Assembly: GCF_037975245.1 (NCBI RefSeq)
Contig: NC_092574.1
Location: 6,130,713 to 6,194,712 of the forward strand
Direction of reading: 5' to 3'
DNA: 64,000 nt
Origin: Apostichopus japonicus
Lineage: Eukaryota > Echinodermata > Holothuroidea > Aspidochirotida > Stichopodidae
This document shows, piece after piece, positions 8,564 through 63,060 of this stretch; the first letter of the stretch is position 1, and each line of letters starts with the position of its first letter. The notes under the pieces are model-generated. The model was given only the letters and a program-made list of their open reading frames with translations. It was not told the origin of the DNA and did not search any database. Both the position numbers and the translations under genes were made by a program.

Positions 8564-9675
8564 TTAACTTAACAGAATGTTTGTAAATGTCTCGTTTTGA
8601 TGGAGAACCTCCTTATTGTAAAACTTCGCAAACGTTGTTTCTGACTTCCATCCAGCAACTTTTAATATTTCTTCGATCGGCACACTCCTAGAGTAGGCGG
8701 CTGAAATTGATGCGACCCTTGTACTATGAGCGGAAAATGTTTTAGTATCAACTCCTGACAAATCCAAAACCAGCTTGATCCATCTTGCAAGCGTGTCACG
8801 AGAAACTGCAGCATGCGGTTTTACATAACTAATAAATAGTTTTGAGCAACTACCTCTTTGGTTCTTTGTTTGTTTGAGATAGAACTCCAATACTTTCACA
8901 ACACTAATCGTTTGATCTTCTGGAAAGTGTCTCAGTACAACTTTTATCGGACCAGATCCAGGTCGTGATTGTTTCATCTGTTCGGAGATCGTAAAGACAA
9001 CAGTACTGCCATCCCATGCACTGTGGAGATATCTAATAGCTGCAAGGTTTGTAATCTTTGAGCGGAAGCTAGTGCCACTAAAGTAACCAGATTCAGTGTT
9101 AGCATCTTCATAGAAAGTGAACTTAAAGGATGCCGGCCTCTTAAATACCTTAACCCTATTGAAACATCCCAAATGTTATCGTACCGACATGAAGGCGGTC
9201 TTAGATGGTAAACTCCCTTTATAAATCTTGATACCAAATGATGGTTGCCTATGGTATTATCAGAATCCCTCATAATTATTGATGAAAGAGCACACCGTGC
9301 GGTGTTCAATGAACTATAACCGAGTCCGGAATTGAATAGGTGGGTAAGGAATGTTACTACAGCCGTCAGAGACGGTCGAAACATATCCACCTCCCTTTGA
9401 ACACAAACCTGTCCCCACTTTCTGTGGAAACCTGCATACTGTTTTTGTGTTTCTTTTCGCCATGATGAAATGATAATTTTGCTAGATTCTTGTGAAAATC
9501 CTTGCATTCGGAGTGCCTCCCCGACAAGCGGCAAGCCAGAAGCCGCAGTTTGGGGCAAAGCGGATGTCGAATCGTATCCCCCGGAAGTACCAGCATGTCC
9601 AACCTCTGTGGAATAATAATTGGATTTGCGGTAAGAAGAGAAACCAAAGTTGTATTCCAAGGTTGGGAAGGCCAA
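8564..9675 (-). pseudogene. tyrosine recombinase of the DIRS element, frameshifted
   Basis: The N-terminal half (9675 down to about 9000) has a SAM-like core-binding region and the first catalytic Arg in LASAQRLQTLQLLD. The C-terminal half, in another frame, has AHSTRVAS (HxxR) and GWKSETTFAKFY (catalytic Tyr). The frame change lies near 9000-9030. The R-H-R-Y tetrad is therefore present but split. Confidence 0.78.
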
Positions 9676-9780
9676 TCTGGCACAATAACAATTCCATATG
9701 CTTCATCTATTTTTATATTTTGTATCATTTTGTCAATGAGACTAAAAGGGATAAGGAAAGGCATAAAAATAAAAGTCTTT

Positions 9781-10320
9781 CTAATTTACCGAAAAGGCGT
9801 CCAAAAAACATGCCTTTGAATCTGGCTTCCATGATGCATATTTATCTATTTGTTTGTTAAATTTTGATGCGAATAAATCTATGCTGGGATATCCAAACCT
9901 AGCTACAATATCGCCAAACAACTTTGGTTGCAACATCCACTCGGTATGATGTTTCTGTGGACGTGATAATTTGTCCGCTACTATTGTCTTTCCCTGGTAA
10001 AAAGGCAGGAGAAATCCAAATATTCCGTTCAGTTGCCCATACCCAGATAGCCTTAGCAACCGAATTAGACTGCATGGAATGCGAGCCTCCCATGTTATTA
10101 ACATATGCTACAGCTGTTGTATTATCTGACTGGACACGAATGTAGATATCCTTGGAGCCTAAACACAGCTTTTTCAACGCTTGTAGAATAGCTTTTAATT
10201 CCAGTACATTTATATGTAAACTCTGCTCTTGTGGGTTCCACACGCCCGACGCTTACCCATGCGGCCTAAGTGTAACAGCACCCCACCCAAATAGGGATGC
10301 ATCAGTTTGAATGATTAGAA
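9781..10320 (-). pseudogene. DIRS RNase H and adjacent domain, broken
   Basis: Contains TDAS...GWGA, then INVLELKAILQAL and QSDNTTAVAYVNNMGG, the RNase H pattern of DIRS and Ty3-like elements. It is followed in another frame by a FARFGYPSIDLFASKFN-like stretch (VARFGYPSIDLFASKFNKQ) typical between RNase H and recombinase in this order. Frameshifts separate the pieces. Confidence 0.65.
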
Positions 10321-11330
10321 GTGGGTCCGGAGTCAAAATATCCCGGTAGTTCCCTTTCAAATGCTCCTTCCACCAAGATAACTCTTTTAATGCTTGGGAT
10401 GAGAGTAACATAGCACTGTCAAAGTTACCAAAATTACGTTGGAGAGCTGAAGTTTTTTCCCTCTCTAAAAACCTATAAAAGAGGGGGCCATGTCGCACCC
10501 ATGGGAAGAGAGACACAATGTAGCCAATAACAGCTGCTACCTCTCTCACCGAAGGTGTGAATTTCTGTTTTAACCTTGAAATATGACCCAGAACCTCAAT
10601 AATCTTGTTTGATGTTGGCCGAACTGTCATTTCTGTTGAATTCAACATGAACCCTAAATAAAATAGTTCTCTGAATGGTTTCAAAATTGATTTCTTAGTG
10701 TGAACAATGAAACCTAGCTCTTGAAATAAGCTGTCAGTCTTCATAACTATTCGCTATTAAAAATGAATCGTCAATATACCCCATACAATCAACTCCTTGT
10801 TTCCGCAAATAGGCAAATAAGGGTTTCAGCAATTTCGTAAAAACCCTTGGGGCTGACGTAATGCCCATTGGCAAGCAAGTAAACTGAAACAGCTCATTTT
10901 TCCATCGAAAACGCAAAAATTTTCTGAAGCAATTACATACTGGAACCGAATAGTATGCATCTTTTAAACCCACAGAAGCCATACAGCAGTTTTTATGCAT
11001 TAACTTTGAAGCTGATGCCAAGGAATCCATTTTGAAATGGTGATACCGGATATGCAAATTTAATTCTCTGAGATTAAATATAACTCTATTTGACCCCTCT
11101 TTTTTGGGAATAACAAAAATGTATAAAACATATTCCCCCTGGGTATGTGTCACACGTTCTATTACACATTTGGAGAGTAACTTTTCTATTTCATCTTGAA
11201 TAATACTCATTTCGGCTATTGTACGTTTTGGTTGTAACGGTGGTCTCAACTGAAATGGCACTTTTTTATATCCTGTTACCCACTCAAGGATAGTTTTATC
11301 AGATGTTAACTCCCGCCACCTTGGCAGCAG
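10253..11330 (-). pseudogene. DIRS reverse transcriptase, broken
   Basis: RT fingers and palm are readable: IPKKEGSNRVIFNLRELN, then LKDAYYSVPV, LPMGITSAPRVFTK and YIDD. Motif A reads SVGLKDAY, so the catalytic Asp expected at 10970-10968 is Gly. After NSYED a stop at about 10734 and a frame change lead into KTDSLFQELGF and on to the connection with RNase H (TDASLFGWGA). Confidence 0.75.
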
Positions 11331-11579
11331 TTTTTTATTCTGCCACCTATGTCTGTTGATATTAACTGAAAATCATTAACAACATATTCCTTACCTCGAC
11401 AATCTAATGTCTTGGTTGTTTCGGGGGTCGGTAGTGGGTCATTTGTCCTCTGGCACGTTTGTTGCCCATCATGCCACGGTCTAAAAAATGACCAGACCCT
11501 CTCGAGAATCCTCTGCCAGGAAATGTACCACGTGTGTAAGGTGGCCTTGAACCTCTGCCTCTCCCCCGATTTGCCGTAC

Positions 11580-12493
11580 TTATCGTGCGGACACTCGGTT
11601 AGCCTCTGCTATGTCTCTTAATTTTGGGGAAATATCATCACCCATCAACGTTGTAGTAACTGGATTTGACCGGTTACACAGATTTCTATACTCAAGTCTC
11701 AAATCTGGTCTGAGTAACTCACGCCGAAAATGGTTGAGTTCCATGTCCGCACTGCCCAATAGTGCCAGCGCATCTGTGATCTTAATAAGCGTTGCTTGAG
11801 TGCCCATTTTTTCTCTCGTTGATAAAATGTCATCCATTAAGGTTGTTAATGCTGTAATTGCCTTAATATTACAAGCTTGCATTTTTTTGAGCTTCACATC
11901 TGACGCTCTTGTATTTTTACGAAGGCCATTCCAAATTACCTCATTTATCTGAGTTGTCTGCAGTATTTCTAAATTAGCTGACATATCATATTTGACCAAT
12001 AACCCTTTGAGCTTGGACTCTGCCAGGCGTTGTTTTTCATACAGTATCCACTAATGTTTTAACTCTGTCATCGACAGATTTTCCTGGTTTCTTTTCTAGT
12101 TTTAAGAACGCCACAAGGTCCTGAAACAATGCATCGTTATCTGTAGTAACTGGGTTTGCCCCTTCCGGAGAAAAGGGTGAATTGTTGACCTCATATATTG
12201 AGTCCTCAGGCAACAAATCATACACTGCTTCAAGGTATAAATTACTGCAGCTGGAGCTGCTCTCATTTTGTGACCAAGTAGCTTTGAATTTGTGTCTTTC
12301 CCTAACACCTTGTTACTCAATACTTGAATTTGGTTCTGCATTGCTAAAATTGCATCTTTCATATCAAAACTTTGAGTAGTTTCAGATGAAGAAGTAATTG
12401 GAATGTACCTGAGCCACATGGCGCATCCAAAAACCCAGACATCTCATCCTCATCAATAAGGGACATAATATCATCCTCACGAGTATTAGCCAT
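11580..12493 (-). pseudogene. DIRS gag-like ORF, frameshifted
   Basis: Starts at ATG 12493 with an acidic N-terminus (MANTREDDIMSLIDEDEMSG). Coding continues through pieces in different frames, ending with the block around NEVIWNGLRKNTRASDVKLK near 11900. At least two frame changes (about 12240 and 12040) break it. Identity as gag rests on its position upstream of RT and on composition, so this is moderately sure. Confidence 0.6.
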
Positions 12494-16912: not shown

Positions 16913-61720
<44,808 letters not shown>

Positions 61721-62380: not shown

Positions 62381-62426
62381 AAACCCCTTTCCTTACCTTC
62401 AAGAATATATTACTCCTGGCTCGGAG

Positions 62427-62453
62427 CAGGGAGTTGTTCCATAACAAGTCCCT
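62427..62453. mobile_element. 27-bp palindromic mini-insertion, copy 1
   Basis: Begins CAGGGAGTTGTT and ends ACAAGTCCCT; flanked by exact GCTCGGAG at 62419-62426 and 62454-62461. Confidence 0.65.
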
Positions 62454-62545
62454 GCTCGGAGTAATATTCAGAATGATAACAAAGTTAATTAAAGGTTTTA
62501 AACCCCTTTCCTTTCCTTCAAGAATATATTACTCCTGGCTCGGAG

Positions 62546-62572
62546 CAGGGAGTTCTTCCATAACAAGTCCCT
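62546..62572. mobile_element. 27-bp palindromic mini-insertion, copy 2
   Basis: One base different from copy 1 (GTTCTT for GTTGTT), same GCTCGGAG flanks at 62538-62545 and 62573-62580. Probably spread by tandem duplication of the surrounding 119 bp. Confidence 0.65.
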
Positions 62573-63060
62573 GCTCGGAGTAATTTCATTATCCCATGCT
62601 GCACCCTCCTCAATATCGGTGGCTAGTTTCAAGTTATATACTGAATATATACTGGTTTATACTGAGAAAAGTACTCTTGAAACCATTAACGTGGTAAAAT
62701 TTGTAAATTTGTAGGAAACATTATATATTAATTAGTTCAAAAAGAACTGAACATTCAGTAAAAACCAGTGAAATGAAGGGAATTTCTCCACCGTTGTTTT
62801 TTTCTGAGGGCTTAATTCCTCAACTTGAACTATAACGTCACATAAACTTTCCTCAACTAATAGGAAGAACAGACAATCACGGTTCAGATAATGAACCCTT
62901 TTCCTTACCTTCAAGAATATATTACTCCTGGCTCGGAGTAATTTCATTATCCCATATGCTGCACCCTCCTCAATATCTGTGGCTAGTTTCAAGTTATATA
63001 CTGAATATATACTGGTTTATTCTGAGAAAAGGACTCGTGAAACCATTAACGTAGTAAAAA

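What the first reader, a model, noticed from the sequence alone, without database searches (positions are those of the whole stretch)
62390..63060. A 27-bp palindrome that looks like an ultra-short transposed element, with an empty site beside it
Seen: at 62427-62453 and 62546-62572 a 27-bp near-perfect palindrome starting CAGGG sits between exact 8-bp direct repeats GCTCGGAG. A third copy of the surrounding repeat has one GCTCGGAG and no palindrome (62931-62938). The same 27-bp unit occurs at 37331-37357 with a different 8-bp flank pair (GCACAAAC/GCACGAAC), and a diverged reverse copy is near 37381-37409. Known: hAT elements often start CAGGG and make 8-bp duplications. Inference: this is a mobile unit consisting of little more than two fused termini, or the scar of one. 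The third site could instead be a precise deletion between the direct repeats.
Basis: partly seen in the sequence, partly recalled or inferred. Interest (0 to 1): 0.8.

Follow-up and report, generated by a model that had tools for sequence, protein, structure and literature searches.

The report
Exit scars of a P-type transposon
The short palindrome looks like the healed wound left when a P-type jumping gene cut itself out, and this genome holds well over a thousand such scar-like sites but only about twenty surviving ends of the jumping gene, so past jumps and the repair of each break can be read from the DNA.

Summary
The host genome (671.6 Mb) holds 1,059 places like the 28-mer (<=3 mismatches; control 0), and with perfect ends 1,050 sites of 22-27 bp, 528 of 28 bp and 308 of 29-58 bp. 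In 58 of 71 distinct contexts the flanking 7-mers match at 6-7 of 7 positions (slid control 1 of 355). The hAT reading is wrong. Four full elements (4.5-13.1 kb) have the same ends as a 33-bp inverted repeat, each with perfect 7-bp duplications. Two span a P-transposase domain, and one frame matches Drosophila P transposase (E=1.4e-9). Scars keep up to 18 nt of an end: 36 of 50 listed keep the first 18, none goes on like the parent, and no site keeps 21 and closes within 57 bp. Drosophila P transposase leaves 17-nt 3' tails. With 18-nt tails, both 3' ends pair only in joins of 25 or 28 bp, the two commonest lengths, and the 28-bp join explains the lopsided ATGG/CCAT centre. Best reading: P-element excision scars sealed by end joining. 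The third site is the empty target. No relative was available to see a filled site.

The parts
62427..62454 (+). 28-bp excision scar, copy A (one base off the genome consensus)
   Evidence: 1,059 similar places in the genome
62420..62426 (+). left 7-bp target-site duplication CTCGGAG of copy A
62455..62461 (+). right 7-bp target-site duplication CTCGGAG of copy A
62546..62573 (+). 28-bp scar, copy B: same event as copy A, duplicated with its surroundings
62539..62545 (+). left 7-bp duplication of copy B
62574..62580 (+). right 7-bp duplication of copy B
62932..62938 (+). single CTCGGAG in the paralogous copy without a palindrome: the empty target (inference)
37331..37358 (+). 28-bp scar within a dispersed repeat
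37324..37330 (+). left duplication CACAAAC
37359..37365 (+). right duplication CACGAAC (6 of 7)
37379..37410 (-). older, diverged 32-bp scar in reverse orientation, flanked by TTATGAT (37372-37378) and GTATGAT (37411-37417), 6 of 7

Best explanation
Each palindrome is the donor-site footprint of a P-superfamily DNA transposon. The element inserts and duplicates a 7-bp target. Later its transposase cuts one strand at the element boundary and the other 18 nt inside the 33-bp terminal repeat, leaving two identical 18-nt 3' tails, CAGGGAGTTGTTATGGAA-3', on the broken chromosome. The tails are joined to each other. When the 3' AA of each tail pairs with T11-T12 of the other, the product is 28 bp; pairing with T8-T9 gives 25 bp. 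The middle, ATGG facing ATGG, becomes ATGG or CCAT after fill-in and replication, which explains the asymmetric centre. Other joins, with 0-1 paired base or small inserts, give the remaining lengths. Shown here: the ends, the duplications, full elements with a linked P-type transposase domain, the 18-nt limit, and the length and junction spectrum. Inferred: the staggered cut and the pairing of tails in this organism, from Drosophila work; the 18-nt offset, from where the scars stop.
For: 28-mer (<=3 mismatches) 524+535 places, control 0. Perfect-ended sites: 22-27 bp 1,050, 28 bp 528, 29-58 bp 308, controls 0. Duplications: 7/7 in 42 and 6/7 in 16 of 71 distinct contexts from 90 copies; slid control 1 of 355; 14 of 16 units of other lengths; 9 of 11 contexts among 19 units of 25-27 bp, 11 of 19 counted as copies. 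Full elements: 20 places of the 33-bp end (<=3 mismatches), 8 of them in four inverted pairs with perfect 7-bp duplications; two pairs span a PF21787 match; the C3 frame matches 6p5a at 1.4e-9, PF21787 at 1.8e-29 and PF12017 at 2.1e-5. 18-nt limit: 36 of 50 listed units of 29 bp or more keep the first 18 nt, 0 of 36 go on TG like the parent, 9 of 36 agree for one more base; 0 sites keep 21 nt and close within 57 bp. Only 25 and 28 bp let both 3' dinucleotides pair; of 50 listed units of 22-27 bp, 37 are 25 bp and 22 have exactly the predicted sequence. Drosophila precedent: 17-nt tails and junctions of the same build between duplications, 14 and 5 isolates.
Against: No individual or relative was available in which a scarred site is still filled. 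13 of 71 contexts lack a 6/7 match. 4 of 12 sampled places and 7 of 20 show one end without a closing partner, unexplained. L180 keeps 58 nt of one end in a 68-bp unit, beyond the 18-nt limit; it needs a second process such as interrupted gap repair. The predicted DNA duplex of the two tails in the 25- and 28-bp registers is weak (about -1 kcal/mol) and not the best one (-1.5), so pairing must be assisted. In flies the equally common junction (14 isolates) uses an 8-nt imperfect match with the duplication and leaves no palindrome, a class not looked for here. The cut offset is 18, not 17. Site counts are inflated by repeats that carry a scar: 90 copies are 71 contexts and 9 of 19 sampled 25-27-mers are one repeat family.
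Confidence: 0.92

Rival explanations
1. The 28-bp (and 25-bp) unit is itself a mobile ultra-short element, moved in trans by the P-type transposase.
For: Many copies with matching, differing 7-bp flanks; few full elements (20 ends).
Against: Units come in many lengths, each with duplications, and share an 18-nt limit instead of a common sequence. They lack the inner half of the 33-bp repeat. For Drosophila P, 138 and 216 bp of the ends are given as the minimum (statement in PMC1562414, passages), though the same paper argues for under 100 bp in Anopheles.
Confidence: 0.04
2. Resident full-length or miniature elements collapsed by replication slippage or internal deletion between their inverted ends, without a transposase cut.
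For: Also leaves fused ends between duplications; the 28-mer could arise by deletion between AACAAC repeats in the two ends.
Against: Slippage has no reason to stop at 18 nt of a 33-bp repeat, yet 0 sites keep 21 nt and close within 57 bp. Intermediate sizes are scarce: one 68-bp unit (L180) was seen.
Confidence: 0.03
3. hAT miniature element or hAT footprint.
For: CAGGG start; hAT-type domains are common in the genome (150 matches from 150 scored of 633 candidates).
Against: Duplications are 7 bp; the two full elements with a transposase domain have a P-type one; none of the 150 listed hAT matches lies in the four paired elements (483 candidates were not scored).
Confidence: 0.01

Closest known systems
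Drosophila P-element excision junctions healed by end joining (Chan et al. 2010, PMC2895639; passages and tables seen)
   Same: Two partial transposon ends joined through 1-3 shared bases between intact target duplications; e.g. CATGATGAAATAAC(AT)GTTATTTCATCATG in 14 isolates and CATGATGAAATAACA(TA)TGTTATTTCATCATG in 5, all from 17-nt 3' tails.
   Different: Those are induced events at one engineered locus in spn-A mutants. Here they are natural, fixed in an assembly, at well over a thousand sites; tails inferred as 18 nt, duplications 7 bp, different end sequence.
Galileo, P superfamily (PMC2775673; passages seen)
   Same: 7-bp target duplications with palindromic-looking consensus GTAGTAC; here G-T-N-N-N-A-C-like.
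   Different: Galileo has terminal repeats of hundreds of bp; this element has 33 bp. No comparable scars are described in the passages seen.
P elements and P-MITEs of Anopheles gambiae (PMC1562414; passages seen)
   Same: P-type elements of 4.2-7.5 kb with 27-31-bp terminal repeats.
   Different: 8-bp duplications; the MITEs have non-P internal sequence, and the words palindrome, footprint and scar do not occur in the text.
Double-hairpin and GC-cluster elements of mitochondrial genomes (search listing only)
   Same: Very short palindromic repeats scattered through a genome.
   Different: Organellar, unrelated sequence, no P ends or linked transposase (contrast recalled, not tested).

Membership tests
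P superfamily transposon (parent element) | P-type transposase inside the element | tested here: met
   Two of four paired elements span a PF21787 match; C3 frame of 628 aa matches 6p5a and PF12017. The two 4.5-kb pairs hold none of the 45 listed matches.
P superfamily transposon (parent element) | Short terminal inverted repeats of about 30 bp | tested here: met
   33-bp repeat at both ends of four elements
P superfamily transposon (parent element) | 7-8-bp target-site duplication | tested here: met
   GTTTAAC, GTCTGAC, GGTAATG, CTGAAAC, all perfect; Galileo 7 bp, Drosophila P 8 bp
P superfamily transposon (parent element) | N-terminal THAP DNA-binding domain and GTP dependence | not tested
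   Pfam reported no THAP domain in the 628-aa frame, but other exons were not examined; GTP use is not testable here
P-element excision footprint | Both target duplications retained around partial ends | tested here: met
   58 of 71 contexts at 6-7 of 7
P-element excision footprint | At most the length of the single-stranded tail kept from each end (17 nt in Drosophila) | tested here: met
   Limit at 18 nt; one exception, L180
P-element excision footprint | Junctions at 1-3 shared bases, blunt, or with small inserts | tested here: met
   Drosophila table
P-element excision footprint | Site known to have held the element | not testable with these tools
   No second individual or relative of this genome is held
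hAT MITE or footprint | 8-bp target-site duplication | tested here: not met
   7 bp; base before it unconstrained
hAT MITE or footprint | hAT transposase between the same ends | tested here: not met
   None of 150 listed matches lies in the four paired elements (483 of 633 candidates unscored)

The most novel reading that the evidence does not exclude
This transposon persists in a handful of copies by true cut-and-paste, with its donor breaks sealed mostly by joining its own two tails instead of being refilled from the sister chromatid. The genome is then a ledger of hundreds to more than a thousand germline jumps and of how each break was repaired, with roughly 65-95 scar sites per surviving end. 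A stronger form, that the end sequence was selected to close its own wound, is not excluded but not favoured: 67% of random 18-mers also have a register that pairs both 3' dinucleotides.
Probability: 0.5. Interest if true: 0.85.

Novelty: new variant of a known kind. Interest (0 to 1): 0.74.

Why it matters
P-element footprints are known from engineered Drosophila loci. Here one natural genome holds many hundreds, with target duplications intact and all starting from the same kind of break. That is a large natural record of germline end joining, it gives the likely cut offset of a P-type transposase outside flies from sequence alone, and it shows that a repeat family can consist of repair scars instead of copies of an element. 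Repeat annotation would probably file such units as unknown short repeats or MITEs (inference). My literature searches listed no report of such a genome-wide set; I saw listings and the passages named, not whole texts.

Tried and rejected
Led nowhere: viral contigs (18 contigs for one arm plus ACAA, none palindromic; 0 for a fuller pattern); prokaryote genomes (0 and 0); phage records (no match); window scan for other units bounded by exact 8- or 7-bp repeats (5 and 16 hits against 0-2 and 2-8 in five simulated windows each); search for this end within about 1.5 kb of 30 P-transposase loci (no pair), because the ends lie further out; 3 kb beyond one one-sided end (L172) without a partner end.

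Considered and rejected: hAT origin; a 27-bp unit with 8-bp duplication; a mobile 28-mer; slippage collapse. A recurrent 25-bp centre (GTTATGC) looked like heteroduplex repair, but 5 of the 6 copies fetched sit in one repeat family and only L224 is independent, so no claim is made. Working notes contain two slips mended here: 37 of 50 units (note) is 36, and the 70-bp unit L180 (note) is 68 bp. A first attempt to file this report was returned; it was rechecked.

Full report
What is in the window. At 62427-62454 and 62546-62573 lies a 28-bp near-palindrome, each between exact copies of CTCGGAG. The two are one event carried along by a local duplication, spaced 119 bases. A paralogous copy of the surrounding repeat has one CTCGGAG at 62932-62938 and no palindrome. 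A third copy at 37331-37358 lies between CACAAAC and CACGAAC, and an older reversed 32-bp copy at 37379-37410 between TTATGAT and GTATGAT. The empty copy is itself a weak hairpin (9 of 200 shuffles fold as well), which may or may not matter.

The genome. The window is C14:6130713-6194712 of an assembly of 671,581,487 bases in 35 contigs. It is eukaryotic by content: a BEL/Pao retrotransposon frame and a DIRS-like recombinase. The first 21 bases of the unit (<=2 mismatches) have 524+544 places against 7 for the pattern read backwards. The full 28-mer (<=3 mismatches) has 524+535 places against 0; copies with altered centres may count on both strands. Exact 10-bp ends 28 bp apart: 528 sites; the same ends 29-58 bp apart: 308 sites; exact 8-bp ends giving 22-27 bp: 1,050 sites; controls 0 in all three. 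These three counts use different stringency and should not be compared to the last digit.

Target duplications. I fetched 90 of the 100 places listed (30, 60); the last ten listed were left. They fall in 71 distinct contexts. The flanking 7-mers match 7/7 in 42, 6/7 in 16 and fewer in 13; the same flanks slid outward by 10-30 bases give 1 of 355 at 6 or more. The eighth base is unconstrained, so the duplication is 7 bp. Symmetrised over the 42 perfect ones, the target is G 54%, T 88%, three open positions, A 88%, C 54%. Of 16 units of 30-35 bp, picked from the 50 sites listed, 14 match at 6 or 7. Of 20 stretches picked from the 50 sites listed, one (L214, two abutting scars) was left out; of the other 19 copies 11 match at 6 or 7, and by best member 9 of 11 contexts do.

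The parent. Places where the 18-nt end is followed by a G within six bases (104+115 matches, some overlapping) led to full elements. The 33-bp end CAGGGAGTTGTTATGGAATGGAGTTNTGTCTTC (<=3 mismatches) has 20 places, 15 without mismatch. Eight form four inverted pairs: C2 4,560 bp, C3 12,042 bp, C12 4,480 bp, C17 13,118 bp, with perfect duplications GTTTAAC, GTCTGAC, GGTAATG and CTGAAAC. The other 12 ends were not paired; one is L180, a 68-bp unit. The C3 and C17 elements span two of the 45 matches to the P-transposase domain PF21787. The C3 frame, 628 aa read as it stands, matches PF21787 at 1.8e-29 and PF12017 at 2.1e-5 and Drosophila P transposase, PDB 6p5a, at 1.4e-9. hAT domains exist in the genome, but none of the 150 listed matches lies in these four elements (483 candidates unscored).

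The 18-nt limit. Of the 50 listed units of 29 bp or more, 36 keep the first 18 nt of the end on one side; none of the 36 goes on TG as the parents do, 9 agree for one further base, and 3 more keep 17. No exact site keeps 21 nt and closes within 57 bp. Drosophila P transposase cuts one strand 17 bp inside a 31-bp repeat and leaves 17-nt 3' tails (PMC7776569 and PMC2895639, passages). An 18-nt offset in a 33-bp repeat is the same arrangement, inferred here.

Why 28, and why a lopsided centre. Two identical tails CAGGGAGTTGTTATGGAA-3' can pair with both 3' dinucleotides matched in only two registers, giving 25 and 28 bp. In the 28-bp register ATGG faces ATGG, so the product carries ATGG or CCAT in an otherwise perfect palindrome, as seen. 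Of the 50 listed units of 22-27 bp, 37 are 25 bp and 22 have exactly the predicted sequence. Two 25-mers had been seen before the calculation, so their dominance was predicted, not their existence. Among the 50 listed units of 29 bp or more, 29 and 31 bp are the commonest (10 each), mostly single A:T joins (8 and 7). Against the simple picture, the computed duplex in these registers is weak, about -1 kcal/mol, and a different register scores -1.5, so repair proteins must set the register. In flies the comparable junctions are CATGATGAAATAAC(AT)GTTATTTCATCATG, 14 isolates, and CATGATGAAATAACA(TA)TGTTATTTCATCATG, 5 isolates, in spn-A mutants; a third class of 14 isolates leaves no palindrome (PMC2895639 Table 1) and was not looked for here.

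Alternatives and loose ends. A mobile 28-mer would have to be mobile at many lengths without the inner half of the repeat; slippage has no reason to respect an 18-nt limit. L180 keeps 58 nt of the left end joined to the last bases of the right end between GTTCGAC duplications, as interrupted gap repair plus end joining would give (inference). Of 12 places sampled, 8 are closed scars with a changed base and 4 are one-sided ends; of 20 sampled, 12 are closed units, 7 show no unit and 1 is unclear. The one-sided ends are unexplained.

Limits. Sites are not events. Scaling by the sampled contexts takes 1,886 perfect-ended sites to about 1,330, or 94 and 67 per surviving end. The sample of 90 was chosen by matching the first 21 bases and leans to young copies. 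The tool calls its counts lower bounds. No second individual or relative is held, so no site was seen both filled and scarred.

Verdict. The units are best read as excision scars of a P-superfamily transposon. The kind of event is known from Drosophila; the scale, the survival of scars far beyond the element, and the readable junction spectrum are what I did not find described.

Noticed in passing
L025:1890-1924 and L025:2742-2777; L106:213-238; L212 (C4:15263700-15263731): Other short palindromes between 7-bp repeats with different ends (CAGGGAGCTGCT.., CATGGAGGT..ACCTCCATG, CAGGGAGTTGCC..), possibly scars of sister P families.
   Followed up: partly
L171 (C7:21193880-21194100): A scar-like unit amplified inside a satellite of about 56-bp period.
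   Followed up: no
L087, L093, L170, L184, L180, L214; window 37331 and 37379: Two scars within about 100 bp of each other, far closer than chance for their density; hotspots or local re-insertion. In one search, 3 of 78 loci had a second unit within 160 bp, one of them of another sequence.
   Followed up: partly
L028:1472, L057:1501, L118: Compound units with a partial second end or an extra piece of duplication, like templated inserts.
   Followed up: no
C1 and C2 places such as L216, L222, L223, L232: A repeat family carrying a 25-bp scar; in 5 of 9 sampled members the right-hand 7-mer is inverted (GTACAAC for GTTGTAC) and the centre is TTGCAT.
   Followed up: no
own genome, contigs C16 and C17: Matches to the P-transposase domain are concentrated on two contigs, several with open frames of 600-790 aa in different lineages.
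   Followed up: no
window 54223-59733 (+); 8564-12050 (-); 29518-29592 (-): A long open BEL/Pao frame (1,836 aa stop to stop), a DIRS-like stretch with a tyrosine recombinase match, and a tRNA-like sequence that may belong to a SINE.
   Followed up: partly
window 44137-44703: A 551-bp stretch with near-matching 10-bp inverted ends CAGTGGCGTA/CAGTGACGTA between exact 8-bp repeats CATGTACC, a candidate ordinary MITE.
   Followed up: no
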